This document shows positions 1,254 to 63,746 of a DNA stretch of 64,000 bases, piece by piece. Each line of letters starts with the position of its first letter. Position 1 is the stretch's first letter. The position numbers were made by a program, and so were the translations under genes. Under the pieces are notes generated by a model, which ran no database searches, was not told where the DNA came from, and saw only the letters and a list, made by a program, of their open reading frames with translations. This DNA is from an uncultured Alphaproteobacteria bacterium (lineage in GTDB: Bacteria; Pseudomonadota; Alphaproteobacteria; Rs-D84): assembly GCA_947646585.1 (NCBI GenBank), contig CANSHD010000002.1, positions 62,001 to 126,000 on the forward strand. The letters are read 5' to 3'.

Positions 1254-1493
1254 CAAAAACCACCAATATTTTTGGTGGCCGGGAAGTTCAAAAATCATAA
1301 ATCAAAATGACCCCGCGGCTTTTGGCGTGGCCTTATAACCGCGGCTTCCCGGCGACAAACCGGGATAAAACATGACATGCCACAAACGCATTTATGCGTG
1401 CGGTGCATGTTTTGTGTCGGATATCGGTACGATTTGCTCACACCGTTGATTTATGGGATTTTGAAGTCCCGAATCCACATCCCTGAGGATTCA
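1254..1493 (-). ncRNA. structured leader RNA, copy E (variant subclass)
   Basis: Read on the minus strand. P1 hairpin 1471-1492 has the loop CTCAGGGATGTG. The long-range helix P2 pairs 1446-1455 with 1296-1305, ten perfect base pairs. Strand 1 (1360-1365) pairs with strand 2 (1345-1352, CCGGGAAG), and strand 2 can pair instead with strand 3 (1279-1286, CTTCCCGG). A terminator-like CCACCAA/TTGGTGG hairpin with TTTTTG follows, 27 nt before the start of the Cys-rich gene. The layout matches the other ten copies although the sequence is largely different. With copy F it forms a subclass lacking the GAATATATTGAATA loop. Confidence 0.75.
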
Positions 1494-1498
1494 AGGCC

Positions 1499-1528
1499 AG
1501 TATAGTATTGAGTTGCTTTAAAAACAAG
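1499..1528 (-). promoter_or_regulatory. promoter of RNA element E
   Basis: On the minus strand TTGTTT (1528-1523), an 18-bp spacer and TATACT (1504-1499) place the transcript start at about 1492, at the base of P1. Confidence 0.65.
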
Positions 1529-1547
1529 GATAAAAAGGTGGCGCGGC

Positions 1548-3923
1548 TTACTTTACCACCATGAAACGCACCTCGGTTGCGGCGCCCATTTCATCAACCG
1601 CGCGCAGTACGTGCGCGCCGATTGCAATATCGCGGGCGAATGTTTCGCCGGGCATGCTGGTCCCGATGACATCGCCGTCCAGAAACCAGAATATTTTTGC
1701 GTCCGTCATGTCGGTAACGGCGCGGATTGATATTCGGGCGCTGTCGCGTGCGCTTAATACGACCGTGCGCGTGCCGTCGGCGGGGGAGGTTATAACCGGG
1801 GCGGTGCGCGCGTCGGACACCGTATCCAAATCGCACCCCGGCATATACGGCGGCGGTGTGTGACGGGTGACGCCGGCCCGGCGGAACATGTCAAGATACT
1901 CGGCATCCCAAAATTCATATACCGCCATATGGGTCGTTTCCGGATTGGCCGTGCATGCGCGCAGCCCTGTTTTGTTGTCAATCGGCACCGCGCGGTATAC
2001 CGATGACATTTCAATCGGGGACTTGCCGGGGATAAAATATGCGGCGCGCGGATGCGGGCAATGCGTGCCGGCAATTCCACCGACACTGTCGCACATGTCT
2101 ATGCGTGATATGTTTAAGTCATCGCGCATGAAATTATTGTCGCGCAGTGGTTCGCCACGCCCTGCATAATAATCGCGAACCGCGTCCGCAACGGCGAAAT
2201 ATATCGGGGCGGCGGTCTTGGCGCCGGAAAACGCGTTGTTCGGCCGGCCGTCAAAATTGCCAATCCACACGATTAAAACAAAGTCGCCGAATATTCCCGC
2301 CGTCCATGCGTCGCGGAATGATGATGATGTTCCCGTTTTCCAATAATGGCGCAGCGGTGCCGTCTGTTTTTTTGCGAATGGTATGTTTTGTTGCGGCGTT
2401 TTTTGCTGGCTTAGCATGTCCAGTGTTAAAAAATATGCCTCTGGCGACAACAGGCGGGCCAGTTCCGTGTCGGCGTCGTTCATGTTTGTGCGGATTGCAC
2501 GACGCGTGCCCAAATTCGCCATTGTTGCGTATATGTCGGCCAGTTCCCACATTGATACCTCGGCCCCGCCCAGGGCGACGGATATTCCGTAATATTCCGG
2601 CGACTTTAAATACGACACGCCGGCCCGCGACAGCAGGGCGTGAAAGTCGCGAATGCCGATTTGCCGGACCAGGTTGATTGCCGGAATGTTTCGTGAATGC
2701 GTTAATGCGCTGTGCGCCAGTATGGGGCCGAAAAATTCATTGTCCGCGTTTTCTGGGGCGTATACGCCAAAGTTGACGCGCGCATCTTTTAGCAGCGTCA
2801 TCGAATGTATCAAACCGCGGTCCGTTGCGGCCGCATAAATCAGCGGCTTTAATGTCGAGCCGGGGCTGCGCCGTGCGCGAACGCCGTCGTTTTCGCCGAA
2901 AATGTCTTTGTCGAAATAATCCGCCGAACCAACGTACGCCAATGTTTCCATTGTCTTGTAATTTATCAGCACGGCGGCGCCGTTCGATACGCCGACGGAT
3001 TTGCGCCGCGATATCTGTGTCCGTAATGCGCGCGTGACCGCATCCTGCAGTCCCATGTCCAGCGTTGTCCGGATTTCCGCTTCGTCCGGGCCGATATTAT
3101 GCCGGTATTTTCCGCGGTTTGATATTTCGCGTTCCACAAAATGCGGTGCCAGAAACGGCAGGTCGCGCACCCCGTGCGCCGACAGCGGCATGCCGGCCAT
3201 CGCCTGCAACGCCGGGTCGTCGCCGTACGCCGCGGTCCATCGCCGTACCAAATCGCCCCGCATGTGCATTATGTTTTCCAGACCGTTTTTTGTGGATATG
3301 TTGCGCTTGGTCGGGTTTTGCGGAATCGTTGCCAAAGTGATTGACTCTATTGTCGTCAAATTTTCCGCACGCTTTTGGAAAAATATCAAAGATGCGGCGC
3401 CGACGCCCTCTATATTTCCACCATATGGCGCCAGGTTCAGGTACGCCTCTAATATTTCGCGTTTTGAATGAAAGGCGTCCAGGTAAATTGCCGCGGCAAT
3501 CTGTTTCAGTTTTCCAGCGGGACGCTTGGTGTTCAAATTATATCGCAGGCGTGCAACCTGCATTGTTATTGTGGATGCGCCGGCGGGATGGGAGGCGCCA
3601 CGGAAGTAGCCTGCGGCGGCCTTGGCCAATGACACGGGATTAACCCCCGGGTGCAGGTAAAAGTATTTATCCTCGTACAATATTATTGCGCGTGCGGCAT
3701 CGGGGGCGATTTGGGTCAGCGGGGTGTAAAGTCTGTATTTGTCATCCGCGCTAAGCGTTAATCGCATTAACCGGCCGTTGCGGTCAAAGTATGCGTTTGA
3801 AAAATATGTTCGGGACAATATCGGCGGAATCAGCGTCCAGCGCACAATCAAATACACGGCGGCAATCAAGAATGCCGCCGTCCAGAATTTATGGCGCCGG
3901 ATGAAATCAATCGTTCGATTCAT
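1548..3923 (-). CDS. pbpC: penicillin-binding protein 1C (bifunctional glycosyltransferase/transpeptidase)
   Basis: The 791-aa product has the PBP1C layout: an N-terminal membrane anchor (about residues 13-33), a family 51 glycosyltransferase domain (EDKYFYLHPGVNP and GASTITMQVARL motifs), then a transpeptidase domain with the active-site STLK, SRN and KTGTS motifs. The last 90 residues match the C-terminal domain typical of PBP1C. It builds or repairs peptidoglycan at the inner membrane. Its start lies 17 nt inside the end of the upstream alpha-2-macroglobulin gene, so the two are translationally linked, as in the yfhM-pbpC pair of enterobacteria. Alpha-2-macroglobulin is thought to trap invading proteases while PBP1C repairs the wall. 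Confidence 0.95.
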   Translation of the reverse strand: MNRTIDFIRRHKFWTAAFLIAAVYLIVRWTLIPPILSRTYFSNAYFDRNGRLMRLTLSADDKYRLYTPLTQIAPDAARAIILYEDKYFYLHPGVNPVSLAKAAAGYFRGASHPAGASTITMQVARLRYNLNTKRPAGKLKQIAAAIYLDAFHSKREILEAYLNLAPYGGNIEGVGAASLIFFQKRAENLTTIESITLATIPQNPTKRNISTKNGLENIMHMRGDLVRRWTAAYGDDPALQAMAGMPLSAHGVRDLPFLAPHFVEREISNRGKYRHNIGPDEAEIRTTLDMGLQDAVTRALRTQISRRKSVGVSNGAAVLINYKTMETLAYVGSADYFDKDIFGENDGVRARRSPGSTLKPLIYAAATDRGLIHSMTLLKDARVNFGVYAPENADNEFFGPILAHSALTHSRNIPAINLVRQIGIRDFHALLSRAGVSYLKSPEYYGISVALGGAEVSMWELADIYATMANLGTRRAIRTNMNDADTELARLLSPEAYFLTLDMLSQQKTPQQNIPFAKKQTAPLRHYWKTGTSSSFRDAWTAGIFGDFVLIVWIGNFDGRPNNAFSGAKTAAPIYFAVADAVRDYYAGRGEPLRDNNFMRDDLNISRIDMCDSVGGIAGTHCPHPRAAYFIPGKSPIEMSSVYRAVPIDNKTGLRACTANPETTHMAVYEFWDAEYLDMFRRAGVTRHTPPPYMPGCDLDTVSDARTAPVITSPADGTRTVVLSARDSARISIRAVTDMTDAKIFWFLDGDVIGTSMPGETFARDIAIGAHVLRAVDEMGAATEVRFMVVK

Positions 3924-6900
3924 TTGTAACCGTGAATGTTCCGCCGCGTCCTGTTGCCGTTATAGACGGATTGTACATGGCGGCCGCGTGTATCGGCGCG
4001 ATGGCGAACGTGCCCGCGGCGCCCGCCTGGGCGGTATATGAATATGTTGATTCTTCGCGCGTGACGTCCGCGTATATTACGACGCGGTCCGCACGAACCT
4101 CTGCGAAATTATAGTCGCCGGAAATCGTGTCGCCGTCCGCGATAAAGCCGCCCGGCAGAATATCGACGATAACCGCGCCCGGTACGTTTTTCACATCGCC
4201 GCGCGCACGAACGGATATCTTAACCTGTACCCGGTCGCCCAGACCAGCGTCGGTTATCTTGTTGCCGTCCATGTCGTAATATTCGCGGACAATATCCATG
4301 CCGCGCGCTTGGGCGGATACGGATTTCGGGTATCCCTGGCGCACTGTTGTCCAGTATAAATTCATACTGGAACCGCAATCCGGACATGATATCTCAATCT
4401 TGGCCGCATCCGCGGGCAGGGCGGCGACAAACGGGCCTGATTTCCCGTCGGATGACAGCGGCGCGCCGTCAACGGTGACGGTGACCGCGTCGGATACCTT
4501 GTTTGTGGTACCCATGCCGGCGGCGTTGCCCAGTATAAGCGCAGCGGCGGTGAACGACGAATATTCGCCGGCGTTTATATATTTTATTTGTGCGCGCGAC
4601 GGGGTGGCGGCGCCGTATCCCAAATACTTGGTCGCCAGGTATTGACGCCAGGCGTTGTTGGCGACCGTGTTGTCAAATTCCGACGTATATTTTATCGCGT
4701 CTTCGGTCTTGTATTTTGACGCCAGGGCCGCCGCGCGTTCGTCCTGGTGCATGATGGCGTATGCCGCCGCAATATACTGGCCGGACAGTTTGGATTCCCA
4801 ATCCTTTTGATTGGCGTTGGCCCACTCCTCGAATTGGCCGATATATGCGGTTGTAACGTATTCGTTTGCAGTGATTACGTATATCGCAAATGCATGTGCG
4901 TCCGCGTCCGGTATGTCGTTTATTGTTGTTCCTGCATACGTGCGCAGATAGTCCAGCGCCCGTGCGGTCATTTCGCGCGGAACATCAAACCCGCGGTCGC
5001 GCGCCAGATTTAAAAACTGGACCACATATGCCGTTATGTATGCGGTGCGTGCGTTGTTTTCATTGTCGCGTCCGGTATTTCCGCCGGCCCACATTGCGAA
5101 CGAGCCGTCGTCGTTTTGGCGGTTTTTAAGTGTCGCGATTGTGTCGGCAACTTTTTTCGCCGCCGTGTCGTATGTTATGCCTAAAATGTCGCTGGCCCCG
5201 ATTGCGACGTACGGAATTGCGCGCGACGTCATCTGTTCGGTGCAGGTCCATTCATATTTGTTCAAATATTCGACCAACGGGCGCACCAGAGCGTCGGCGC
5301 CATACGATATGTATAACATGTGTGACGCGTTGTCGGCGTACATGTCTGTGTTTTTCGTGCGAACGGTCGTCTTTTTCTCGTTCAGGGTTCCCATCTGAAT
5401 GTCGGTTGTGAACGGCGTTATCGGACGTACGGACATGTTTGCGATGCCGTTTGCGCCGAACGCACCGTTTGTCGCGTTCACGGAAATGTCGGCCGGGCCC
5501 AGTACGCTGTCGGCGCGCGATGTGATTTTCCACATGCGCTCGGTTGCGTTCGGAACGTTTATTTTTGCGGATGCGTCCGTTTTCAGCGCTATGCCGCCCG
5601 ATGATTTTGCAGTGACGGCAAATTCGGTTTTATCGTCGTCTTCGGTATAGTTGGAAATGACGGCGGCACTGTCGAATACGTCGCCCGGCGCCACGTATGC
5701 CGGGGCGTTCATTGTGACGATAACCGGCCGGCGCACTGTGACGGATGCATCCGCACTGCCGATGCCGTCGTCGCCCGCGGCCACGGCGAACACGCGCAGT
5801 GTGCCGTTGAAAGCCCCGGGAATATTAAACGATACGTCGCCCGCAACGCCCGCGCGTGCGTCGATTATCCCGGAATAAAATGCGACCGGCGCGTCCGTGC
5901 GGCGTGCAAACGGGTTTGCGGCCAGTGCCGCACCACCGTCCATATCGTTATAGTCGCCGCCGCCGGTTTTTGCAAATTCGCGCAATATCTTGTATTCCGG
6001 CAATATCAGCGACAGGATTTGATAGGTTTCAACCTGAAGCGCGGCCTTTTTAAAGAAGTGTGCGACGGGGCGCGGCATTTGATAGCGCGCAACCTGCAGA
6101 ATGCCTTCATCGACGGCGAAAATCATAATGCGTGCGTCGCGGTTGGCTTCATATTTTACGACAAGCGAGTCACCGGTTAATTTTTCCGGCACGGACATCC
6201 TTACATCAATTGTGCGACGGGCCGCGTCGGCGGTAAACGGTGCCACGGCATACGTATATGGCGTGGTGAATATATCGCGGCTGGCGATGTCGCGGACAAA
6301 CGATACGTTGACGTATCCGGTGCCCTCGAATCCGGCGGGAACGGTTATATGTTGTACCGAATTTGTGGTGTTGGTTCGGAACCACTTGTATGCATAAACC
6401 TTGTCGCGTTCAATCGTGATTAAACCGTATCCCGCGTATGGGGCGGTGACGCTGATGGCGATTTCGTCGCCGGGCGCGTATGACGATGCGTTCAGTTTTA
6501 CCTGCAATTCGGCCTGGGTGTCGGATTCCAGGGCGGTATTCTCGTCGCCTGCGACAAAATATTCTATGTTGGCCAGAATTTCCCCGGCCGCATTTATGAT
6601 TTGCAGGCGGTAATTGCCGGGCGCGGTTGTGTTCAGATTTACCGGCATGCCCCGGTCGGTTATGGTTATGTTTTCTTCTGAAACCACATTGTCGCGTGTT
6701 ACTGTCTGGTATTTATAATATCCGGCGCCGTCTTTTATCAGGCTGGTCAAATTTTCACGTTTTATTAAACGCATTTTGACATCGGATGCCGTTGTGCGCG
6801 CCGCCGTATGGTCCACCGCGACCAGGTTGACCGTGCGCGCCGCATCGCGGTTTATGTACGCCAAATCGGAATTTGCGCGCCATCCAATCAAATATTTGGC

Positions 6901-9630: not shown

Positions 9631-9654
9631 GTTTCACCCTTCCGTTTGCAAAAT

Positions 9655-15570: not shown

Positions 15571-15585
15571 CAAAAAAATAAATGC

Positions 15586-15756
15586 AAAAACCACCACTGA
15601 CAAATGGGAGGTTGGAGAATAAGAACCACTATATCAATGGCCCGGCTTATTCAATATATTCAGCCGGTTCTCCAACCATAATGTCAGAGTTCATCGTACA
15701 AATCGTACAATGATTGATATAGAGGTTCTTATGCCTATATCAGCAATACACTGATA
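15586..15756 (-). ncRNA. structured RNA element, copy J (no evident downstream gene)
   Basis: Read on the minus strand. P1 is TATCAG/CTGATA with the loop TGTATTG. P2 pairs 15732-15713 with 15638-15618 and has the family bulge CCTCT. An internal hairpin CATTGTACGA/TTGTACGATG follows. Strand 2 (15677-15666, GGTTGGAGAACC) is complementary to strand 3 (15619-15610); strand 1 is degenerate here. The conserved loop GAATATATTGAATA sits in a CCGGCT/AGCCGG stem. A weak hairpin with GGTTTTTG ends the element. It is arranged in tandem with copy I. Confidence 0.7.
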
Positions 15757-15798: not shown

Positions 15799-15892
15799 TT
15801 TACTGGATTGCCGCGGTCGCTATCGCTCCCTCGCAATGACAGTCGGTCTAGGCTCATTGTCACCGCGAGCGTAGCGTGGCGGTCCAGTAAAT
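15799..15892. repeat. dispersed palindromic repeat, copy 1 (plus a fragment at 15911-15950)
   Basis: An imperfect 94-bp inverted repeat bounded by TTTACTGGATTGCC and GGCGGTCCAGTAAA, with inner arms TCGCAATGACA and TCATTGTCACCGCGAG. A half copy (TTCTGGAATG...CGTAATGACA) follows at 15911-15950. The same unit occurs at 25951, 33969, 36162 and 36292, always between genes. It resembles REP/MITE-type non-coding repeats. Confidence 0.8.
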
Positions 15893-16030
15893 ATGACCAT
15901 CGCCGCATTATTTCTGGAATGTCACGGTCGCCATGCTTCCTCGTAATGACAGTGGTGTGTAATCCTGCGCGGAAAAAGTTGCACGCGTGTGGAAACTTTG
16001 ATATCATTTACACGACAAAGGGATTTATTT

Positions 16031-25950: not shown

Positions 25951-26041
25951 TCTGGATTGCTTCGCATGCGCTCGCAATGACAATGAGCTCAGCACACGAC
26001 TGTCATTGCGAGACCCAACGGGGCGTGGCAATCCAGTAAAT
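25951..26041. repeat. dispersed palindromic repeat, copy 2
   Basis: Bounded by TCTGGATTGC and GCAATCCAGTAAA, with internal CTCGCAATGACA and TGTCATTGCGAG arms. It lies between the nifJ terminator and the promoter of RNA element K. Confidence 0.8.
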
Positions 26042-26043
26042 AT

Positions 26044-26071
26044 TTGCAAATCCCAACTTTTCTGATATAAT
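26044..26071 (+). promoter_or_regulatory. promoter of RNA element K
   Basis: TTGCAA (26044-26049), a 16-bp spacer and perfect TATAAT (26066-26071). The predicted start at about 26078 falls 5 nt before hairpin P1. Confidence 0.75.
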
Positions 26072-26082
26072 TCACAATGCAT

Positions 26083-26224
26083 CGGGTGATTCCCGGTGTG
26101 AGGTTTCATACCCTCATATGTCAAATTCTCCAACACGGTTGGAGGGCTGTGAATAATCAATAAACGGCACTATTACATAATAGGTATGAACCTCCAACCG
26201 CCCTTCATCACGGCGGTGTTTTTA
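26083..26224 (+). ncRNA. structured leader RNA, copy K
   Basis: The smallest copy. P1 is CGGGTGATTCCCGG (26083-26096). P2 pairs CATACC...ATATG (26107-26120) with 26176-26188. Strand 1 is CTCCAAC (26128-26134), strand 2 is GGTTGGAGG (26137-26145) and strand 3 is CCTCCAACC (26191-26199). The AU loop GAATAATCAATA sits in a GCTGT/AACGGC stem. The terminator hairpin CCGCC/GGCGG (26198-26216) with TGTTTTT follows, and its 5' arm overlaps the end of strand 3, so pairing of strands 2 and 3 would directly compete with it. The gene at 26248 follows. Confidence 0.75.
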
Positions 26225-26247: not shown

Positions 26248-26460
26248 ATGGTTCTGGTTGATGCAAAATACTATGGCAACGCAATGCGTTTGGCGCGCAA
26301 GTTTCTGCGCATAACCACGCCGGAGGCGGCGGCGTTACTGCGTATGTCAAAGGAGCAATACAAACGTTGTGAAATTGGGAAAGATGTCTTTCCCGAAGAC
26401 GTGATGCGTCGTCTGATGAATGCGGCGTTTTCGTTGTTGGCCTATAAGTCACGCAAATAA
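26248..26460 (+). CDS. small helix-turn-helix-like protein, 70 aa
   Basis: The product resembles a minimal Cro/C1-type DNA-binding domain: LARKFLRITTPEAAALLRMSKE would be the helix-turn-helix and YKRCEIGKDVFPEDVM the following helix. It has no other domain. ATG at 26248 has GGAGGA 6 nt upstream; an in-frame GTG at 26236 is less likely. It lies directly behind RNA element K and before a terminator, so it appears to be the only gene controlled by that element. The function is probably regulatory, but no target is known. Confidence 0.65.
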   Translation: MVLVDAKYYGNAMRLARKFLRITTPEAAALLRMSKEQYKRCEIGKDVFPEDVMRRLMNAAFSLLAYKSRK

Positions 26461-26488
26461 AAAATCCCGCCAAACGGCGGGGATTTTT
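26461..26488 (+). terminator. terminator between convergent genes
   Basis: AAAATCCCGCC/GGCGGGGATTTTT with an AAAC loop. Confidence 0.9.
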
Positions 26489-27092
26489 AATTTGTGTAAT
26501 AACAGTTTCTGGTATATGTGCCACTGCCGGTGGAATCGCTGAACGCGGTGCCGGACGGCAAATAGCACGATGTTATACTGCTTGAACCGGCATTCGCGGT
26601 TGTGCCGTACACGCCGCCGGACGACGGGCAACGGTTGCAGCCGGATGTGCCGTTCGCTGATGCGCCGTAATATCCGACAGCGCATCGGTATTGCGTTTCG
26701 CTTTCGCATGTATTGCAATCACATGTTCGCGTGGTTAATTTTTGATACCCGGTGCCATGTGACGACCATGTTGTGTCGCTGGTACAGTTTGTGCAGCCGG
26801 TGCAGTCCCGTTCGCATATTTTATAACTGATTATACACCTGGAATTTGACGGGTGCGTTTCCGTGCGTGTTACCAATTTGTACCCTGATGCGCAAGAGGT
26901 GCAGTTGTTGACATAATATTCGTCATAGTATTGTTCTGTGCTGAACAGGCATTCGTCAGAGGTTCCGCCGATATCCGTGCAGTCGGAGTACATGCACATT
27001 GTTCCCGTTGATACACAGGCGCTAACGCCGTATGCTTTATAAACAGGCCATACGGTTGCCGCCGTGGCCAAAAGCAATATATATTTGTTCAT
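26487..27092 (-). CDS. secreted Cys-rich protein with shared C-terminal tail
   Basis: The 201-aa product has a signal peptide (about 1-23) and more than 20 cysteines in repeated spacing (CTSCASGYK, CERDCTGCTNC, CDCNTCESETQYRC). The C-terminal tail contains GYYG, RCPSSGGVYGTT, CYLP and SDSTGSGTYT, ending CYYTN, nearly the same as the tail of the protein at 38362. It probably acts outside the cytoplasm, folded by disulfides. It lies behind RNA element C and its promoter. The family is not recognised. Confidence 0.8.
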   Translation of the reverse strand: MNKYILLLATAATVWPVYKAYGVSACVSTGTMCMYSDCTDIGGTSDECLFSTEQYYDEYYVNNCTSCASGYKLVTRTETHPSNSRCIISYKICERDCTGCTNCTSDTTWSSHGTGYQKLTTRTCDCNTCESETQYRCAVGYYGASANGTSGCNRCPSSGGVYGTTANAGSSSITSCYLPSGTAFSDSTGSGTYTRNCYYTN

Positions 27093-34612: not shown

Positions 34613-35038
34613 TTAGTCGGTTAGATTTGAAAACATGGCTGCCCGAACGGTTGGGTTGCCAACAATGATTTGGCAGTTGTTTACGCAATCGTGCATACAT
34701 TGTTGCGTGGTTTGTCGTGCGGCCCCATGAACCCATTTTGATACAGCGGGTGATACCATTTTGCACCAGCATTCGGTATTGGCGCTGAAGTCGGAGGATG
34801 ATATTTCTATATCATCGGATACGTCGGCTAGATTACCTTCGGTACTACCGCATATTGCCACGCCTTTTACTGCTGTTTCGCCACATGTGCCAGACCAATT
34901 GGTTTTATTGTATATACTGGCACTACTGGGATTATATGTTGTCGATGATGATAATTTTACGCATTTGGTTGCAGATAGCGTTGGTCTGGTTGCCATAATA
35001 AGTAATGCGGTGGTGGTCAATAATATCGTATTTTTCAT
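34613..35038 (-). CDS. secreted Cys-containing protein, 141 aa
   Basis: The product has a signal peptide (about 1-22, RPTLSA-T), a Ser/Thr-rich middle and a C-terminal cluster of cysteines (CWCK, CMHDCVNNC). It is not recognised and lacks the RCPSSGG tail. It is first in a two-gene unit with the 94-aa secreted protein and lies 28 bp behind the terminator-like hairpin of RNA element D. ATG at 35038 follows AGGAGAC. Confidence 0.75.
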   Translation of the reverse strand: MKNTILLTTTALLIMATRPTLSATKCVKLSSSTTYNPSSASIYNKTNWSGTCGETAVKGVAICGSTEGNLADVSDDIEISSSDFSANTECWCKMVSPAVSKWVHGAARQTTQQCMHDCVNNCQIIVGNPTVRAAMFSNLTD

Positions 35039-35334: not shown

Positions 35335-35688
35335 CTATTCGCCGCCGGTCATGTATGTCGCGACAGTGCATAAACATTTGCGCTGGGGTGCGGTCATTTT
35401 AGCGTACATTATATTTATCGTCTTGGCGATATGCGGGTCCTGCATGTACGGTGCGGTGGCGCCGTCAACCAGTTGGCCCACCGTCATTTCAAATGCGGTG
35501 GCGATTTTATGCAGCGCGCCGGCGGCAATTCGATTGTCGGCCGATTCGTATTTCTGTATTTGCTGAAACGTGACGCCGGTGACGCGGGCCAGGTCTTTTT
35601 GGGACATTCCCATTTTTGTGCGTTGCATCGCGATAATACGCCCCAGGCGCCTGTCAAAATCATCGGCAATATGTTTACGTCCGCTCAT
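35335..35688 (-). CDS. XRE-family transcriptional regulator, 117 aa
   Basis: The product has a Cro/C1-type helix-turn-helix (MGMSQKDLARVTGVTFQQIQ with QKYESADNRIAAG) at about residues 28-65, the standard layout of alphaproteobacterial XRE regulators. A short helical C-terminal part contains two cysteines. It follows RNA element G, and element H lies further upstream in the same direction, so two elements in series precede this gene. Targets unknown; autoregulation or regulation of surface genes is possible. Confidence 0.88.
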   Translation of the reverse strand: MSGRKHIADDFDRRLGRIIAMQRTKMGMSQKDLARVTGVTFQQIQKYESADNRIAAGALHKIATAFEMTVGQLVDGATAPYMQDPHIAKTINIMYAKMTAPQRKCLCTVATYMTGGE

Positions 35689-36158: not shown

Positions 36159-36161
36159 ATA

Positions 36162-36272
36162 ATTACTGGATTGCCACGTCGGCGCAGGCGCCTCCTCGCA
36201 ATGACAATGAAGTGTAATTGTGTACTTCCTCCCCATTGTCATTGCGAGCGTATGCGAAGCAATCCAGTAAAT
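36162..36272. repeat. dispersed palindromic repeat, copy 4
   Basis: Bounded by ATTACTGGATTGCCACG and GAAGCAATCCAGTAAAT, with inner TCGCAATGACAATG/CATTGTCATTGCGA arms. It directly abuts the promoter of RNA element H. Confidence 0.8.
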
Positions 36273-36291
36273 AATGAACATAACCGCTTTG

Positions 36292-36390
36292 TTCTGGATT
36301 GCCACGTCGGTGCAGGCGCCTCCTCGCAATGACAGTCGGCCCAGACACGTTGTCATTGCGAGGGAACGTAGTGACCGCTGCAATCCATAA
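36292..36390. repeat. dispersed palindromic repeat, copy 5
   Basis: Bounded by TTCTGGATTGCCACG and GCTGCAATCCATAA. Its left half is almost identical to copy 4, 20 bp away, so the two form a tandem pair. Confidence 0.8.
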
Positions 36391-38338: not shown

Positions 38339-38364
38339 CAAAAACGCCCGTCCGGGCGTTTTTA
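38339..38364 (+). terminator. terminator between rho and the convergent secreted gene
   Basis: AAAACGCCCG/CGGGCGTTTTT. Confidence 0.85.
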
Positions 38365-38931
38365 ATTTTTGTAGTAACAATCACCGGTGTATGTGCCGCT
38401 GCCGCTGGTGTCGCTGAACGCCGTGCCCGCCGGGATATAGCATTCGGTGATTGCGGTTGCGCCCGCGCCCGCGGTTGTGCCATATACGCCGCCCGACGAG
38501 GGGCATCGCGTGCATGATTTGTCGGTGCCGTAATATCCCTGTTTGCATCGATATGCGCATGACGGGTTTAATAGTGTGCCGCCGCATATTGTTTGATAGT
38601 TTGTGCCCGAAACGTCCGACCAGGCCAGACGGTCGGGGCATTCCGACGGGCATTCGCCGCCGATGGGTTCAAAACTTAACGGACAGTCGTTGTACGTGAT
38701 TGTTTCATATGATGAAATCTTTACGGATTTCTCCGTGGGGGTCGAACCGTCTTTGCATGTTTTGCAATCGTAGTACTTGGCGGAACCGCATGTGATTAAG
38801 CGGTTTATTATTGCACAATTACCGGTGTCTGATGGCGACGGGTTATAGAAGCATGATGTCGGCGTCGTGGTAATCGCATATGCCGATGCCGTCAATGTCG
38901 TAATAAATATACATACTAGGTATTTGCGCAT
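38362..38931 (-). CDS. secreted Cys-rich protein with shared C-terminal tail
   Basis: The 189-aa product starts at ATG 38931 with the signal peptide MRKYLVCIFITTLTASAYA. Its mature part has repeated cysteine pairs (CKTCKDG, CPSECPDR, CAYRCKQGYYG). The tail reads CTRCPSSGGVYGTT, CYIP, SDTSGSGTYT and ends CYYKN, almost identical to the tail at 26487. Unlike its relatives it has no recognisable RNA element upstream; the leader has only a GGTGGTTTTAAAACCACC palindrome. A longer in-frame start at 39057 is unlikely because it would bury the signal peptide. Confidence 0.8.
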   Translation of the reverse strand: MRKYLVCIFITTLTASAYAITTTPTSCFYNPSPSDTGNCAIINRLITCGSAKYYDCKTCKDGSTPTEKSVKISSYETITYNDCPLSFEPIGGECPSECPDRLAWSDVSGTNYQTICGGTLLNPSCAYRCKQGYYGTDKSCTRCPSSGGVYGTTAGAGATAITECYIPAGTAFSDTSGSGTYTGDCYYKN

Positions 38932-39132
38932 GATTTTATCCTCCGTTGGTGGTTTTAAAACCACCGTTTTATTTCGGCATTTTTTAGTGTTGACAATGGC
39001 TTGTTTCCCGGGATAAAATGAATGCAGACAAGCGATTAGGAAAACGGTCCCTTGCATTAGGCATGGGATTTTTTTGTATAACCGATTAAATTAAGTCAAA
39101 AAATTCACATATAAAATTCACGGGATTTTGAA
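38932..39132. other. non-coding leader without a family RNA element
   Basis: A palindrome GGTGGTTTTAAAACCACC (about 38948-38966) lies just before the secreted gene, and CCCGGGATAAAATGAATG-type sequence follows. No strand 1/2/3 set or AU loop was found, so this is not counted as a copy of the RNA family; it could be a remnant. Confidence 0.4.
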
Positions 39133-50232: not shown

Positions 50233-50262
50233 AAACGGGCCCGTCGGGGCCTGTTTTTATTC
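50233..50262 (+). terminator. terminator between convergent genes
   Basis: AAAAACGGGCCC/GGGGCCTGTTTTT with a GTC-type loop and one mismatch. Confidence 0.75.
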
Positions 50263-51045
50263 CAAATGGCACTGCTTTTTTATGTCCTTCCAGTTTGTTA
50301 TCGCAAAGCCGCGCTGGTCTGACGGTTTGTTCATTTCTTTGACACAATCGTTATAAACCGATGACGGACAGCGCCAGCATTCTTTCATTGTGTCTTTGGC
50401 GTATTGTTTAAGCGTGCTCTTTTTTATGCATTTTTTTGTCTGGCGGTTAAAAAATTCGGTGTACGGGTCGCACTGGATACAGCTGTTTTGGTCCTCGGCG
50501 GGGCCCTGGTAAACAGTTCTTTCGCACTTGATGCATGTGTTTGAGGCTGCGTCGGCAAATACCTCGTCCGCATTGCATGGCTTTATGCATTCTTTGTTGC
50601 GCAGTATCAATCCCGTATTGCAAGTATCCGGTTCTGTGCATTCCACAACATGTGTCCCGCCGCATGCATCCGTTTTTATTTGCTTGTTGCATGTGCCGCC
50701 GGCAACGCTCATGCGTTCGGTTTCCGTGTTGACAATCCATGTGTCGGACCGTACGTACATGCCCGACTTCTCGCCGTTGCCGCCACAGCAGAAGTATGTT
50801 TCATGCGGCTCTGTTTGAAATGTGAACCCTTCGCCATGAGATTGCCAGAATACAGTATCGTGGCCCTTTGACTTTTTGCCGTCACACCGGGCGGACTGGG
50901 CGCCGCAGTAATAATATGCCCATCCGCTGCCCGGATATTTGCTGTCGCGCCAGCATTCGTTCCCGCCGCCATGCTTGTGGTCCGCCTTTGCGGCGGGTGT
51001 GACGCATATTGCAATCAGTGCGGCAATGCAAATCTGTATTTTCAT
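50257..51045 (-). CDS. secreted Cys-rich protein, 262 aa
   Basis: The product has a signal peptide (MKIQICIAALIAICVTPAAKA) and about 27 cysteines in EGF-like or knot-like spacing (CNTGLILRNKECIKPC, CIKCERTVYQ, CIQCDPYTEFF). It includes a short CWRCPSS block that resembles the RCPSSGG tail of the family at 26487. A His-rich stretch (ADHKHGGG) opens the mature part. It lies behind RNA element F, in the same relation as the other secreted Cys-rich genes. No known family recognised. Confidence 0.8.
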   Translation of the reverse strand: MKIQICIAALIAICVTPAAKADHKHGGGNECWRDSKYPGSGWAYYYCGAQSARCDGKKSKGHDTVFWQSHGEGFTFQTEPHETYFCCGGNGEKSGMYVRSDTWIVNTETERMSVAGGTCNKQIKTDACGGTHVVECTEPDTCNTGLILRNKECIKPCNADEVFADAASNTCIKCERTVYQGPAEDQNSCIQCDPYTEFFNRQTKKCIKKSTLKQYAKDTMKECWRCPSSVYNDCVKEMNKPSDQRGFAITNWKDIKKQCHLE

Positions 51046-51288: not shown

Positions 51289-51290
51289 CC

Positions 51291-58412: not shown

Positions 58413-58413
58413 G

Positions 58414-59098: not shown

Positions 59099-59126
59099 TT
59101 GTATAACCAAGTACCAAGGATGTATT

Positions 59127-59543: not shown

Positions 59544-59550
59544 ATAATAA

Positions 59551-59576
59551 AAAAACACCGCGTTGGCGGTGTTTTT
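59551..59576 (+). terminator. intrinsic terminator
   Basis: AAAAACACCGC/GCGGTGTTTTT with a GTTG loop, 6 bp before the promoter of RNA element A. Confidence 0.9.
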
Positions 59577-59582
59577 ATTTTC

Positions 59583-59611
59583 TTGTTTTTCTGTTTGGCG
59601 GTACATATAAT
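59583..59611 (+). promoter_or_regulatory. promoter of RNA element A
   Basis: TTGTTT (59583-59588), a 17-bp spacer and TATAAT (59606-59611). The start is predicted at about 59618, 2 nt before P1. Confidence 0.75.
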
Positions 59612-59619
59612 TACCGTGT

Positions 59620-59827
59620 CACCGAGAGTTTCGGTGATGGGGTGTGAAGACCTCTGCGTAAGCGTCGGAATATGTACCTGTGGCGCGCAAGTTTGCGCCG
59701 TTTTTACTATTCGGGCGAAAAATAAAACTCCTGACCGGGTCAGGAGGGTTGCGAATATATTGAATAAGCACACAATTCTTACGATTGTCTTCAACCTCCT
59801 GGCCACCAAATGTTTTGGTGGTTTTTC
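59620..59827 (+). ncRNA. structured leader RNA, copy A (reference copy)
   Basis: P1 is CACCGAGAGTTTCGGTG (59620-59636), followed by the conserved ATGGGGTGTGA. P2 pairs GAAGAC (59646-59651) and CGTAAG (59657-59662) with 59778-59792, leaving the bulge CTCTG. The internal helix GTCGGAATA/TATTCGGGC holds the hairpin GGCGCGCAAGTTTGCGCC. Strand 1 is CTCCTGACC (59728-59736), strand 2 is GGTCAGGAGGGTT (59738-59750) and strand 3 is AACCTCCTGGCC (59793-59804). The conserved AU loop GAATATATTGAATA is at 59752-59765. The terminator hairpin CCACCAAATGTTTTGGTGG (59803-59821) with TTTTTC lies 26 nt before the gene. Confidence 0.82.
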
Positions 59828-59852
59828 ATTTCGAAAGATAGGAGTTGGGAAG

Positions 59853-60506
59853 ATGAAAAAATTATGTGTTTTGGCGGCGCTGGCACTGGTGCCGGGCGCG
59901 GTCGGGGCGGCGGAGATGTATCTTGGAAATAGCGGGAGCAATTTGGGCAATACAATGCCGGGGGGAGCCGGTGGCTATTATAAGTGTCAGAACAGTGTAT
60001 CGTTCAGTTGTCAGTCGGATTATATAAAAATTACTTACACCGGCCAGTCCGGCGGCAATGGAACATCCGTGTCGCCGTATATTTTGACCGGGTGCTCTTT
60101 TGTCAGCTGTGCATGCGGATATAACCGTTATTTGTCGGGTGGAAAATCTTGCACAAGCTGCTCGAATAATGCATTGGCGGCGCCGGATTATAATACTCAT
60201 CACACAAATACGTCGTGCCAGTATTGTGGCAGTACTTCTCTTATGACAAAGCCCGCCGCCGGTGTGGTTGTATGCAGTGCCTGTCCGGCAAACGGTACCT
60301 GTGACGGCACAACCACTTTGAAATGCGACAAGGGGTATTATGGAACGTCAACATGCACGCGGTGCCCGGGTATTGTCGGCACGCCTTCTACCACCAAGGC
60401 TGCCGGTGCCAAGTATAAAACCGAATGTTATATTCCAAAGGACGGAACGTTTTATGATGAGAGTGGCGGCGGCGTTTTTACAGACGACTGTTATTACACA
60501 AATTAA
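59853..60506 (+). CDS. secreted Cys-rich protein with diverged C-terminal tail
   Basis: The 217-aa product has a signal peptide (about 1-20, GAVGA-A), a Gly/Ser-rich N-terminal part and Cys-rich repeats (CSFVSCACGYNRY, CTSCSNNALA, CSACPANGTCDG). The tail (GYYGTSTCTRCPG, then TECYIPKDGTF and CYYTN) is a diverged form of the shared family tail. It lies behind RNA element A. ATG at 59853 follows AGGAG. Confidence 0.8.
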   Translation: MKKLCVLAALALVPGAVGAAEMYLGNSGSNLGNTMPGGAGGYYKCQNSVSFSCQSDYIKITYTGQSGGNGTSVSPYILTGCSFVSCACGYNRYLSGGKSCTSCSNNALAAPDYNTHHTNTSCQYCGSTSLMTKPAAGVVVCSACPANGTCDGTTTLKCDKGYYGTSTCTRCPGIVGTPSTTKAAGAKYKTECYIPKDGTFYDESGGGVFTDDCYYTN

Positions 60507-60533
60507 AAAAATGCCCCGTTCGGGGCGTTTTTA
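60505..60533 (+). terminator. terminator between convergent genes
   Basis: AAAAATGCCCCG/CGGGGCGTTTTT type stem with a short TT loop. Confidence 0.85.
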
Positions 60534-60959: not shown

Positions 60960-60981
60960 TTTTTAACCATCCTTTTTGTGA

Positions 60982-60987
60982 TATAAT
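60982..60987 (+). promoter_or_regulatory. -10 element of the transketolase gene, near-leaderless
   Basis: TATAAT at 60982-60987, with no good -35. The predicted transcript start (about 60994) leaves at most 2 nt before ATG 60996, and no ribosome binding site is seen. Confidence 0.5.
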
Positions 60988-60995
60988 ATCACATT

Positions 60996-62792
60996 ATGAA
61001 GTACGATTCCAAAGATTTACAAGAAATGGCGTCGGCTGTACGCAGTGCGGCGTTGAAGTCCATAATTTCCGCGCGCAGCGGGCATGTCGGCATTGTGTTG
61101 GGCGCGGCCGATATTGTGACGGATATCTTTGCTAATTTTTTGCGCCGCGGTACGGACCGATTTGTATTGTCCGCCGGGCATGGCAGTGCGCTGTTGTATT
61201 CCGTGCTGAGTTTGGCTGGGTATGAATTGCCGCCGCTGGACAGTTTTCGCAAAATCGGCGGTCTGCCGGGGCATCCGGAATTCGGTATTCCGGGCGTGTT
61301 TGCAACGACGGGGCCGCTCGGCCAGGGGATTGGCAATGCGGCGGGTCTGGCACTGGCCGAAAAAATACAAAAAACGGACGGACGCGTTTTCTGCCTGTGC
61401 AGTGATGGTGACCTGATGGAGGGCGTAGCCCAAGAATCGATTTCTTTTGCGGGTCGCTATAAATTAAACAACTTGGTTGTTGTGTGGGACGACAACGGCG
61501 TCAGCATTGACGGTGCGGCCCAGACCGATATTGATATGCCGGCGCGAATGCTGGCGGCGGGATGGCGCGTTATAACGACCGACGGACATGATTTTGATGA
61601 GATTACGCGTGCGCTGAATGCGGCGATGCGTGGCAAGGCACCGGTGTTTATTCAGGCGAAAACCGTAATCGGGCGCGGTTCGTCCGCGGCGGGGACGTCG
61701 CGTGCGCACGGGCTAGGGCTGAGTATGGGGGAGCTGGAGAAATTGGCCGCCGATTTATGGTCGGAACGCGGAATGGAATTATGGTCGGAATTTGCATCCG
61801 AATCAGCGAATGCCGCCGATGCCATGCCGGCCTGGAGTGCGCCCGACTTGTCGAATATAAACGTTACGTGGGATATGGACACGGATGCGGCGACGCGTGA
61901 ATTGTCCGGAATATTCTTGTCGCGATTGATGGATGAAAATCCGAACTTAATCGTGGGCAGTGCGGATTTGGGCGGCAGCACGAATGTTAAGAACGCCGCC
62001 GCGCGTGACATAATGCCGGGTGAATTTGTCGGAAATTATATAAATTATGGCGTGCGCGAGCATGCAATGGGCGCGGTTATGAACGGCTTGGCGGCGGCGG
62101 GATTGCGGCCGGTGGGTTCTACATTTTTGGTATTCTCCGATTACATGCGTCCGTCCGTTCGTCTGGCGGCGCTGTCCGGATTGCCGGTAATATATGTGTT
62201 CACGCACGACAGTGTCGCCGTCGGCGAAGACGGTCCCACGCATCAGCCGATAGAGCAGTTGCCGTCGTTGCGGTTGATGCCGAACTTAAACGTATTTCGT
62301 CCCTGCAACGGGCCGGAGGTTGCGGCCGCATGGACGTTCGCACTGTCGGATACGGCGCGTCCGTCATGCATTGTTTTATCGCGTCAGAAGGTGCGCCAGA
62401 TTGCGACGCCATCCGATACAGACTTGTCACGTGGTGCGTATATAATTCGCCCGGCGCGCGGTGGGCGCGTGCGCGCAACGCTGATTGCGACGGGGACAGA
62501 GGTGCCGCTGGCGGTGGCGACGGCGGAAAAAATGGGCGCCGGGGTTCAGGTTGTATCAATGCCGTGCGTGTCAATGTTCCGTGCGCAAAGTGATGCGTTT
62601 AAAAAGGAAATTCTGCGCGGATATGTCGTGGCGATAGAGGCCGCGGCCGCCGCGCCGTGGTTTGAATTTGCGGATGCGGTTGTCGGAATCGATGAGTTCG
62701 GCGCGTCCGGCGACGGCACCGCCGTGTATGAAAAATACGGCTTTGACGCCGATATAATCGTCCGCCAGATAGAGAAAAACATAAAGAAATAA
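60996..62792 (+). CDS. tkt: transketolase
   Basis: The 598-aa thiamine-diphosphate enzyme moves two-carbon units between sugar phosphates. Seen are GHGSALLY (His near the active site), GPLGQGIGNAAG, the ThDP motif SDGDLMEGVAQES and the C-terminal GEDGPTHQPIEQL. It is about 60 residues shorter than E. coli TktA, close to the short archaeal and firmicute forms, but all core motifs are present. It overlaps the following metallopeptidase gene (TAATG). Confidence 0.93.
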   Translation: MKYDSKDLQEMASAVRSAALKSIISARSGHVGIVLGAADIVTDIFANFLRRGTDRFVLSAGHGSALLYSVLSLAGYELPPLDSFRKIGGLPGHPEFGIPGVFATTGPLGQGIGNAAGLALAEKIQKTDGRVFCLCSDGDLMEGVAQESISFAGRYKLNNLVVVWDDNGVSIDGAAQTDIDMPARMLAAGWRVITTDGHDFDEITRALNAAMRGKAPVFIQAKTVIGRGSSAAGTSRAHGLGLSMGELEKLAADLWSERGMELWSEFASESANAADAMPAWSAPDLSNINVTWDMDTDAATRELSGIFLSRLMDENPNLIVGSADLGGSTNVKNAAARDIMPGEFVGNYINYGVREHAMGAVMNGLAAAGLRPVGSTFLVFSDYMRPSVRLAALSGLPVIYVFTHDSVAVGEDGPTHQPIEQLPSLRLMPNLNVFRPCNGPEVAAAWTFALSDTARPSCIVLSRQKVRQIATPSDTDLSRGAYIIRPARGGRVRATLIATGTEVPLAVATAEKMGAGVQVVSMPCVSMFRAQSDAFKKEILRGYVVAIEAAAAAPWFEFADAVVGIDEFGASGDGTAVYEKYGFDADIIVRQIEKNIKK

Positions 62793-63496
62793 TGGTGGAT
62801 TCCGAATACGTTTTTACGACCGCGCGCGGCGAGGATATACGTGTTGTTATTTCGACGCGCCGGGGTCTGCGCAATATAACGTTGCGGCCGAAAACGCGGC
62901 CGGCGCGCGAAATTCATATTTCAAAGCCGTGGCTGGTGCGCGACCGGGCGGCCTTGGATTTTCTGGAAAGCAAGCGCCGCTGGGTCGAGCGTATTTTTGA
63001 CCGGGCGCCGGCCAAAGAATGCGCGGCACCGGGCATGTGCATCGAATTTCTGGGGCGCAGCGTTGTTGTTGTGCACGACCCGGCGCGCCACTCGAACGGA
63101 TACAGCGATGACGGCGCGCGGTTGATTATCGGGGGCGGGGCGGACATGTTTGAGCGCCGCCTGCGGGATTTTATAAAGAAAGAATTTCTGGCCGAGGTAA
63201 AACGCATGATTCACACGTGCCCGCGTGAGCTGTGGCCGGCGCGTATTGCGGTGCGTGACACAACCAGCCGCTGGGGCAGCTGTTCTTCGACCGGGACAAT
63301 GTCTTTTTCGTGGCGTCTGGCGTTTGCGCCGACGGACGTTATGCGATATGTCGTTATGCATGAAATGGCGCATCGCGTGCACATGGACCATTCGCCCGCA
63401 TTTTGGGCGACCGTGTCGGAACTGTACGGATTCGGGGTAGAACGTGCAAAACGCTGGCTGAACACCCATGGCGGCGAATTGCACAAATATTTGTAA
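62792..63496 (+). CDS. YgjP-like (M48-related) metallopeptidase
   Basis: The 234-aa product belongs to the YgjP/DUF45 family: TSRWGSCSSTGTMSFSWRL precedes the zinc motif HEMAH, and the third ligand lies in HMDHSPAFW. The family is widespread with uncertain function. It overlaps the transketolase stop codon by 1 bp. No signal peptide. Confidence 0.88.
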   Translation: MVDSEYVFTTARGEDIRVVISTRRGLRNITLRPKTRPAREIHISKPWLVRDRAALDFLESKRRWVERIFDRAPAKECAAPGMCIEFLGRSVVVVHDPARHSNGYSDDGARLIIGGGADMFERRLRDFIKKEFLAEVKRMIHTCPRELWPARIAVRDTTSRWGSCSSTGTMSFSWRLAFAPTDVMRYVVMHEMAHRVHMDHSPAFWATVSELYGFGVERAKRWLNTHGGELHKYL

Positions 63497-63503
63497 TATT
63501 ATC

Positions 63504-63531
63504 TTGCTTATTTAAATCCGGTCTGTAAAAT
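63504..63531 (+). promoter_or_regulatory. promoter of RNA element B
   Basis: TTGCTT (63504-63509), a 16-bp spacer and TAAAAT (63526-63531). Confidence 0.6.
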
Positions 63532-63539
63532 GAAAATGT

Positions 63540-63746
63540 CCGCGGGTGTTCCGTGGATGGGGTGTGGAAACCCCTTGTGATTGCGTCGGAATATGTACTT
63601 ATGGGCGCGCAATTGTGCCGTTTGTATTATTCAGATGATAAAAACTCCTGACCCGGTCAGGAGGGTTGTGAATATATTGAATAAACAACACAATACAATC
63701 ACATTGTTTCCAACCTCCTGGCCACCAAATGATTGGTGGTGTTTTT
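63540..63746 (+). ncRNA. structured leader RNA, copy B
   Basis: Very close to copy A. P1 is CGCGGGTGTTCCGTG, followed by GATGGGGTGTGG. P2 pairs TGGAAAC (63565-63571) and GTGATTG (63577-63583) with 63696-63712, with bulge CCCTT. Strand 1 (63645-63653), strand 2 (63655-63667) and strand 3 (63712-63723) are complementary. The loop GAATATATTGAATA is in a GTTGT/AACAAC stem. The terminator hairpin CCACCAAATGATTGGTGG (63722-63739) with TGTTTTT lies 25 nt before the outer-membrane protein gene. Confidence 0.82.

What the first reader, a model, noticed from the sequence alone, without database searches (positions are those of the whole stretch)
1254..63746. Eleven-copy family of structured RNA elements in 64 kb
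The same secondary-structure layout occurs at 1254 (E), 15374 (I), 15586 (J), 26083 (K), 27116 (C), 35066 (D), 35713 (G), 35954 (H), 51070 (F), 59620 (A) and 63540 (B), on both strands. Each copy has a P1 hairpin, a long-range helix, an internal hairpin, a three-strand complementary set and (except E, F) an AU-rich GAATATATTGAATA-type loop. Most end in a terminator-like hairpin before a gene. Sequence differs widely between copies while the pairing is kept. I know of no named RNA family with this layout, but could not search Rfam.
Basis: partly seen in the sequence, partly recalled or inferred. Interest (0 to 1): 0.95.

Follow-up and report, generated by a model that had tools for sequence, protein, structure and literature searches.

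The report
Phage-type antisense RNA leaders, sixty-fold
A gut bacterium with a tiny genome carries about sixty copies of an RNA element laid out like the leader that temperate phages use to keep a gene switched off, most of them directly in front of a gene, often one for a secreted or DNA-binding protein; each copy is predicted to release its own small antisense RNA with a largely private pairing code that would silence its own unit.

Summary
In detail: all eleven copies exist, and a covariance model trained on six of them plus eight genome copies recovers the other five. The 0.97-Mb genome holds at least 64, and 45 of 59 genomes searched (own plus relatives) have matches. The long-range pairing covaries strongly: in 28 aligned copies the two specificity helices pair in every cell, with nine of 13 pairs changed on both sides. 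"No named family" is only half right. The 3' half is a remote relative of Rfam sRNA-Xcc1 (RF02221; best 48.3 bits, cut-off 53). RF02221 loci elsewhere, often before phage antirepressor or symE genes, share the same 5' half, and the layout (target X1-X2, then folded antisense RNA X2'-X1') is that of phage P1's annotated a1 b1 - C4 unit. Three differences: the third target copy at the start codon (20 of 26 outside loci) is not detectable here; a strong predicted terminator stands right before the gene; and the element is amplified with diversified codes (17 codes in 17 similar copies). Likely mechanism: C4/CI-type antisense attenuation, mainly of secreted cysteine-rich protein and HTH genes. Layout, covariation and homology are shown; processing, trans action and sign of regulation are inferred.

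The parts
59620..59826 (+). copy A, whole element (P1 to terminator)
   Evidence: R1 98.4 bits at 59738-59826; anatomy
59645..59651 (+). A: X1 TGAAGAC (like a1), in the loop of hairpin SL2 (GGGG..CCTC; last base shared with the stem)
   Evidence: pairs with X1' in 28 of 28 aligned copies; place
59657..59662 (+). A: X2 CGTAAG (like b1)
59680..59705 (+). A: P3 hairpin GGCGC..GCGCC with T-run, terminator-like
   Evidence: 21 of 56 located genome copies have one, letter shuffles 0.6%
59728..59736 (+). A: S1, rival partner of S2
   Evidence: helix 3
59738..59747 (+). A: S2, 5' strand of the C4-like outer stem; starts GGT (predicted RNase P site)
59748..59771 (+). A: P4 hairpin with GAATATATTGAATA loop
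59778..59783 (+). A: X2' in the loop of hairpin P5 (like b')
59787..59793 (+). A: X1' in the linker between P5 and S3 (like a')
59795..59804 (+). A: S3, 3' strand of the outer stem, followed by ACCA
59801..59826 (+). A: predicted intrinsic terminator T2; its 5' strand shares GGCC with S3
59853..60506 (+). gene after A: 217-aa cysteine-rich protein with signal-like start
63540..63746 (+). copy B, before an outer-membrane beta-barrel protein gene (start 63772)
   Evidence: R1 96.6 bits; PF13505
27119..27331 (-). copy C, before a Cys-rich secreted-type protein gene (26487-27092)
   Evidence: R1 96.1 bits
35068..35274 (-). copy D, before a protein gene with signal-like start (34613-35038)
   Evidence: R1 83.1 bits
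35715..35894 (-). copy G, before an HTH gene (35335-35688)
   Evidence: R1 70.3 bits; PF01381
35954..36121 (-). copy H, in tandem before G
   Evidence: R1 38.4 bits, not in training
15585..15756 (-). copy J, in tandem before I
   Evidence: R1 66.1 bits
15374..15531 (-). copy I; no separate T2, S2:S3 runs straight into the T-run; no convincing gene after it
   Evidence: R1 31.4 bits, not in training
26080..26223 (+). copy K, compact form without P3, before a 70-aa HTH-like gene (26248-26460)
   Evidence: R1 59.4 bits, not in training
1255..1492 (-). copy E, sRNA-Xcc1-like type, before a Cys-rich secreted-type protein gene (622-1227)
   Evidence: R1 45.6 bits, not in training; RF02221 30.1 bits
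51071..51283 (-). copy F, sRNA-Xcc1-like type, before a 262-aa Cys-rich protein gene with signal-like start (50257-51045)
   Evidence: R1 37.3 bits, not in training; RF02221 38.3 bits, E 2.5e-5 in 401 b

Best explanation
Each copy is laid out like the antisense-control leaders of temperate phages (P1's C4 unit, and Rfam's sRNA-Xcc1, the one it is related to in sequence): a two-part target X1-X2, then a three-stem RNA carrying the complement X2'-X1', then in nearly all a predicted terminator and in most a gene right behind it, and it is predicted to release a small antisense RNA that would pair with the X1-X2 of its own newly made leader and so likely keep transcription from reaching the gene. 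Shown: the layout, the covariation, the code diversity, the sequence relation to RF02221, and the position before genes. Inferred: a promoter just upstream; cutting by RNase P at the GG that opens S2; action in trans; silencing rather than activation; and that S2:S3 and T2, which share bases, are the switching parts. Because X codes differ between most loci but agree in some tandem copies, each unit is expected to answer mainly to its own RNA, as the P1 and P7 heteroimmunity by C4 suggests.
For: (1) RF02221 hits own copies, best 48.3 bits, no broken pair; R1 hits 9 of 26 RF02221-type loci outside at E<0.01: 6 of 22 loci from genomes and 3 of 4 phage loci, the latter all over the RF02221 cut-off. 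(2) Outside loci carry the same 5' half: cognate X1+X2 of 13 or more in 21 of 26 against 17 of 650. (3) The P1 record annotates a1, b1, C4, a2, b2, icd in this order, and C4 has the same fold: outer stem, two hairpins, one paired loop, paired linker. (4) Of 20 genes tested behind RF02221 loci, 9 have Bro-N, KilA-N, P22_AR_N or Rha domains (phage antirepressor-type; that label is recalled) and 2 SymE, above cut-off; four phage records inspected have Ant, antirepressor or KilA-N genes there. (5) Own type: the X1 and X2 helices are paired in every cell with 102 double-changed cells; with S2:S3 the score is 0.456 against 0.118 shuffled and at most 0.067 slid; the code test on copies from other records gives 84 of 95. 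(6) 47 of 63 copies have an ORF start 22-38 nt behind the model hit; in other records 89 of 95 have an ATG ORF within 60 nt of the T-run; 29 of 36 matches to the Cys-rich family lie within 500 nt behind a copy. (7) S2 starts GG in 60 of 63 and RCC follows S3 in 36 of 63; in A. baumannii, C4-like RNAs show high read coverage starting at GGW, all but two (PMC5320573 section 16); RNase P RNA is present.
Against: The third target (a2 b2 over the ribosome-binding site), by which P1 C4 represses, is not found: own copies 1 of 63 at 13 or more, permutation p 0.15; 3 of 95 in other records, p 0.63. In longer windows there is at most a weak excess (0-90 nt 240 of 5000 permutations as good, 60-150 nt 421 of 5000 with 4 of 63 at 12 or more against 1.6%; further out nothing). 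C4 and c4-a1b1 models do not match the genome at E 1, and R1 does not find P1 C4. No own RF02221 hit reaches the cut-off. Only 21 of 56 located copies have a P3 terminator, so how pairing at X1-X2 would cause termination is not shown. Folding lets S2:S3 and T2 largely coexist. No transcript data. No Hfq found. 22 of 63 antisenses also match a foreign, non-tandem leader at 13 or more.
Confidence: 0.6

Rival explanations
1. Cis-only folding switch: X1-X2 pairs only with X2'-X1' of the same molecule and chooses between S1:S2 with a full terminator and S2:S3 with a weakened one; no free small RNA acts.
For: S3 and the 5' strand of T2 overlap in 50 of 62 copies; S1:S2 is a conserved rival of S2:S3; the third target is not found.
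Against: 17 similar copies have 17 codes (X2 core identity 0.43, S2 0.99), more variation than a purely internal helix needs; the relatives RF02221 and C4 exist as free RNAs (PMC2996969, passages and section 8, Northern blot and RACE; PMC5320573, section 16).
Confidence: 0.2
2. Same parts, opposite sign: a short X1-X2 RNA ending at P3 frees the long transcript, as short IsrK does in Gifsy-1, so the unit activates itself.
For: IsrK precedent (PMC4825925, abstract and sections 12 and 21 read); the P1 a1b1 region also matches isrK, 35.1 bits, below its cut-off 50; terminator-like P3 in 21 of 56.
Against: Compact copies such as K have no P3; IsrK works through a translated upstream ORF, not looked for here.
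Confidence: 0.12
3. Free-standing small RNA genes with targets elsewhere; the gene behind is incidental.
For: A -10-like box in 53 of 56 located copies (letter shuffles 0.50) and a terminator-like hairpin in 60 of 63; tandem copies without a gene between them.
Against: Same strand and 22-38 nt spacing to a start in 47 of 63, and the like in other records.
Confidence: 0.08
4. A dispersed mobile element or DNA hairpin site (attC-like, MITE) whose structure is kept as DNA.
For: Many dispersed and tandem copies, variable number between relatives; sRNA-Xcc1 itself travels in integron cassettes (PMC12444791, passages).
Against: Fixed orientation and spacing to genes, promoter-like box and terminator, and a code that pairs outside the hairpins. 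Flanking duplications were not looked for.
Confidence: 0.03

Closest known systems
sRNA-Xcc1 (Rfam RF02221)
   Same: Same outer stem, P4 and P5 hairpins, paired loop and linker, remote sequence similarity both ways; same 5' half upstream of the Rfam model. The Rfam model covers only the 3' domain.
   Different: Own copies are below the gathering score; most have a GAATATATTGAATA-type loop instead of AAUACAA..GAAA; no detectable third target at the start codon; a strong predicted terminator before the gene; at least 62 R1 matches in the genome, while one search shows at most 9 RF02221 matches per genome (it scored only ten candidates per genome, so those are lower bounds).
C4 antisense RNA and a1b1 target of phages P1/P7 (RF01695, RF03163)
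   Same: Order a1 b1 - antisense RNA - gene; outer stem with GG start and ACC end, two hairpins, b' in a loop and a' in the linker.
   Different: No model match; no detectable a2 b2; P1 has a UUCG tetraloop where these have the AU-rich loop.
Phage P4 CI RNA with seqA and seqC; Gifsy-1 IsrK / STnc1160
   Same: An RNA processed from a leader that pairs with leader targets and stops transcription (P4), or a short and a long form of one leader (IsrK) (PMC4825925, section 21).
   Different: No seqC counterpart found; no sequence comparison with P4 was made; no upstream ORF of the orf45 kind was looked for.
Acinetobacter baumannii Group 1 sRNAs
   Same: C4-like RNAs multiplied in one genome with variable a' (21 similar sequences, 15 full-length; PMC5320573, section 16).
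   Different: There a' is the only variable region and targets are only proposed; here X1 and X2 both vary together with their complements, and most copies sit before a gene.

Membership tests
sRNA-Xcc1 (RF02221) | covariance score at or above 53 bits | tested here: not met
   15 matches at E<=1 in the genome, best 48.3 bits
sRNA-Xcc1 (RF02221) | whole consensus structure kept | tested here: met
   L009: model 1-87, no broken pair; F has four marked positions and A several, so met for the best copy, not for all
sRNA-Xcc1 (RF02221) | AAUACAA..GAAA loop of P4 | tested here: inconclusive
   a related loop in the six E/F-type copies aligned, replaced in the type I copies
C4 antisense RNA (RF01695) with a1b1 (RF03163) | match to the Rfam models | tested here: not met
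   none at E 1 in the genome; one 21.6-bit RF03163 hit (cut-off 46.7) over SL2 of A in a small search, taken as chance
C4-type unit (as layout) | two-part target upstream, complementary loop and linker in a three-stem RNA | tested here: met
C4-type unit (as layout) | second target a2 b2 at the ribosome-binding site | tested here: not met
C4-type unit (as layout) | RNase P cut at the 5' end of the outer stem | not testable with these tools
   GG start 60 of 63, RCC end 36 of 63 fit but do not show it
C4-type unit (as layout) | antisense repression in trans | not testable with these tools
   needs experiments
Integron attC site | AAC..GTT core boxes in attC order | not tested
   by eye the order here is GTT..AAC; motif recalled, from no call

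The most novel reading that the evidence does not exclude
A reduced gut bacterium has turned a phage immunity RNA into a library of about sixty private on/off codes: each secreted or surface protein gene is silenced by its own antisense RNA, diversified so that units do not cross-talk, which could allow independent, heritable or one-at-a-time expression of a cysteine-rich secreted protein family without Hfq or dedicated repressors.
Probability: 0.25. Interest if true: 0.87.

Novelty: new variant of a known kind. Interest (0 to 1): 0.7.

Why it matters
It links three things filed apart (sRNA-Xcc1, phage C4/CI immunity RNAs, and an unannotated repeat family of gut Alphaproteobacteria) into one architecture, predicts what sRNA-Xcc1 does (antisense control of the antirepressor or symE gene behind it), and offers a natural set of dozens of paralogous antisense codes in one genome for testing how RNA regulators stay specific. 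Many of the genes concerned belong to a secreted-type cysteine-rich family: three of the four Cys-rich products tested have no Pfam match over cut-off, and the fourth (behind F) has a borderline Ephrin_rec_like match.

Tried and rejected
A named riboswitch or other Rfam family: gathering and permissive scans of the window gave only tRNA, sub-threshold RF02221 and hits that I take as chance. attC site: considered because sRNA-Xcc1 lies in integron cassettes, set aside because the copies have fixed orientation and spacing to genes; not tested formally. A downstream second target in own copies: tested with duplex energies (p 0.31), with the two-helix score and in windows out to 420 nt; only a weak, uncorrected excess in the first two windows. 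A longest-helix test was useless because G-T pairs make chance helices long (88.6% of non-cognate pairings reached 6); it was replaced by Watson-Crick two-helix scoring. The c4-a1b1 hit was not seen genome-wide and was dropped. Competition of S2:S3 with T2 by folding: median probabilities 0.88 and 0.73, so a strict switch is not shown. The script that finds S3 misplaced it in at least five of 63 copies (C1:338089, C1:658403, C2:418, C2:10910, C2:97716); they stayed in the counts, as misses or low scores in the pairing tests, but their S2:S3, RCC and overlap entries are unreliable. Rows dropped: 7 of 63 and 4 of 26 copies with score below 12; 13 of 108 pattern matches; 4 of 30 outside loci too near a contig end. 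The shuffles keep letters only, not dinucleotides. Leaders of eight Cys-rich family matches without a copy were fetched late (with two others; one of the eight lies in the window); R1 then found one more copy, C1:13960-14064, 30.3 bits, and none at E<0.01 in the others; it is not part of the 63.
Full report
CHECKING THE OBSERVATION. I read all eleven places on both strands. A, B and K lie on the + strand, the others on the - strand. In reading direction the fullest copies have a promoter-like -10 box, a short hairpin P1, a hairpin SL2 (GGGG/GAGG..CCTC) whose loop holds X1, a segment X2, in many copies a GC-rich hairpin P3, then S1, S2, hairpin P4 with the AU-rich loop, hairpin P5 whose loop holds X2', the linker X1', S3, and a predicted intrinsic terminator T2 (absent as a separate hairpin in I). 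A covariance model of the 3' domain (R1; 14 sequences, six of them from the window) finds these eleven places and no further copy in the window; five of the eleven were not in the training set. In the whole genome (968 kb, 2 contigs) R1 gives 62 matches at E below 0.01 (which scored 150 of 469 candidates, so this is a lower bound); with one more seen only by RF02221 I worked with 63. A later look at fetched leaders found a 64th (C1:13960-14064, 30.3 bits).

IS THE PAIRING REAL? For every copy I asked how well its antisense segment pairs, in order, with the 150 nt upstream of it, and compared this with all wrong combinations. At 13 or more Watson-Crick pairs: 54 of 63 right combinations, 50 of 3906 wrong ones, 0 of 10000 permutations as good. 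The same in 95 of 108 pattern matches from public genome contigs (13 dropped because they were too near an end or had no recognisable S3): 84 of 95 against 125 of 8930. In an alignment of 28 full-length type I copies (17 own, 11 from relatives) the X1, X2 and S2:S3 helices are paired in 644 of 644 cells, with 104 double-changed cells, 102 of them in X1 and X2 (shuffles 25.9, sd 3.9), and a covariation score of 0.456 (shuffled 0.118, slid at most 0.067); the number of further pair types does not exceed the shuffles (27 against 26.0). The nested helices P1, SL2, S1:S2, P4, P5 and T2 reach 95.2% paired cells and 0.294 against 0.141 shuffled and at most 0.103 slid; P5 itself hardly varies. The shuffles ignore kinship, so these numbers are not probabilities; the slid controls keep it. 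R-scape was not available.

WHAT IT IS RELATED TO. No Rfam family reaches its cut-off in the window except two tRNAs. RF02221, sRNA-Xcc1, appears below cut-off in F, A and E and 15 times at E up to 1 in the genome, best 48.3 bits against 53, without a broken pair. RF02221 occurs in 58 of 398 genomes drawn from the phylum, 39 of them over cut-off (ten candidates scored per genome). I looked at the 30 loci fetched there and tested 26; four lay too near a contig end. The 5' half with X1 and X2 is there too (21 of 26 at 13 or more, wrong combinations 17 of 650), and a third copy of X1-X2 lies just before the start codon (20 of 26 at 11 or more, wrong combinations 26 of 650). R1 finds 6 of 22 of these loci and 3 of 4 phage loci at E below 0.01, and not P1 C4. 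The genes behind RF02221 loci (20 tested; start picked by script) are Bro-N (4, and one below cut-off), KilA-N (1), P22_AR_N (1), Rha (3) and SymE (2); eight had no Pfam match. Two similarity searches listed 13 and 7 phage records; in the four that I inspected an Ant, antirepressor or KilA-N gene follows, and all four carry RF02221 over cut-off (62.5 to 86.1 bits), one of them twice. In print, sRNA-Xcc1 is known as an 88-nt RNA of Xanthomonas with mapped ends (PMC2996969, passages and section 8) that lies upstream of symE in integron cassettes (PMC12444791, passages).

THE C4 ARCHITECTURE. The P1 record (AF234172) annotates target sites a1 and b1, the C4 RNA, target sites a2 and b2, then icd and ant1. 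Rfam's C4 fold is an outer stem, a tetraloop hairpin, a second hairpin and a linker; by complementarity to the annotated sites b' lies in the second loop and a' in the linker. Unconstrained folding of copies A, F and K gives the same topology as P1 C4; an outside locus, L079, folded alone does not show it clearly. By section 16 of PMC5320573, C4 is cut by RNase P at the 5' end of its outer stem (a GGW motif), b' covers a ribosome-binding site and a' gives specificity, and A. baumannii has 21 similar C4-like RNAs in one genome. Section 21 of PMC4825925 describes P4 CI with seqA and seqC as causing transcription termination, and seqA as a structural homologue of IsrK. The Rfam C4 and c4-a1b1 models do not match the genome, so I do not file these copies as C4. 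One paper in the held library names both sRNA-Xcc1 and C4 antisense RNA; the passages I saw list them as separate table entries.

WHAT IS DIFFERENT HERE. First, no third target is detectable: own copies 1 of 63 at 13 or more, permutation p 0.15; 3 of 95 in other records; windows out to 420 nt show at most a weak excess near the start. Second, a terminator-like T2 in 60 of 63, whose 5' strand shares bases with S3 in 50 of 62. Third, amplification: 34 of 35 genomes of the genus (own included) and 11 of 18 others of the order have matches, some of them weak, and 0 of 6 others of the class, with 1 to 60 matches per positive genome under the stricter filters used there. Fourth, code diversity: 17 own type I copies have 17 different codes; mean pairwise identity is 0.43 in the X2 core and 0.62 in the X1 core against 0.99 in S2 and 0.86 in the rest of the 3' domain; 41 of 63 antisenses have no non-tandem foreign leader at 13 or more, 22 have one. 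Four tandem neighbour pairs share or nearly share a code; others do not. A pattern scan of genome contigs found type I copies in 104 stretches; of the 80 titles shown nearly all are uncultured Alphaproteobacteria or proteobacteria, many from ruminant guts, with Candidatus Enterousia among them, one Rickettsiales and one Prevotella bin. PMC12306168 (passages) describes Enterousia (order Rs-D84) genomes of about 0.75-1.0 Mb. That the window belongs to this genus is my inference.

THE GENES. 47 of 63 copies have an ORF start 22-38 nt behind the model hit (51 of 63 by the looser rule of the script). 36 of these 51 ORFs have a crude signal-peptide-like start (one is probably spurious) and 31 have at least 5% cysteine. 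Of the 12 copies without an ORF, nine are upstream members of tandem arrays. In other records 54 of 89 ORFs are signal-like and 39 of 89 have at least 5% cysteine. A profile of five cysteine-rich products matches 36 places in the genome; 28 lie within 500 nt behind a copy on the same strand, 29 with the 64th copy; one gene is counted twice and a few matches may lie in a second ORF. Other products: HTH proteins (PF01381 over cut-off for the gene after G; HTH_31 below cut-off for two others), an OMP_b-brl barrel after B, and a 117-aa family without a Pfam match.

MECHANISM. Shown: layout, covariation, sequence relation, spacing. Inferred: promoter (a -10-like box in 53 of 56 against 0.50 in letter shuffles); RNase P cutting at the GG of S2 (GG 60 of 63, RCC after S3 36 of 63; RNase P RNA present); trans action on X1-X2 of the own leader; termination at P3 (21 of 56) or T2 before the gene. 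No Hfq was found. Without a2 b2, direct blocking of the ribosome-binding site as in P1 is unlikely here, so I favour the P4-like, transcriptional version. The sign of regulation is open, since IsrK shows that the same parts can activate. Competition between the C4-like fold and T2 is suggested by the shared bases but not proved by folding.

Noticed in passing
L076-L105 (RF02221 loci of other Proteobacteria): sRNA-Xcc1 loci carry an upstream target, a terminator-like hairpin in 10 of 22 located copies and a third target at the start codon, often of antirepressor or symE genes; I found this described in none of the listings and passages seen.
   Followed up: yes
window 38362-39057 (-): A member of the Cys-rich family without a copy of the element; its leader instead has a CGGTGGTTTTAAAACCACC palindrome right before the start.
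   Followed up: no
window 15800-15900, 26000-26060, 36160-36350: Dispersed TCATTGCGAG..GCAATCCAGTAA repeats directly upstream of several copies.
   Followed up: no
G000 C1:482485, 504828, 545078: A 117-aa protein family (77-85% identical, no Pfam match in the one tested) behind single or tandem copies.
   Followed up: partly
window 26248-26460 and G000 C1:434735: Two loci encode identical 70-aa HTH-like proteins behind copies with different X codes.
   Followed up: no
G000 C2:185-910: Contig 2 begins with a tandem array of four copies; the last two share a code.
   Followed up: partly
L107, E. coli phage PhiR5_2, 300-388 and 837-922: Two RF02221 elements over cut-off, each followed by its own antirepressor gene.
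   Followed up: partly
L217:561-665 (G000 C1:13960-14064): A 64th copy (30.3 bits) before a Cys-rich family match that the genome-wide search had not listed.
   Followed up: partly
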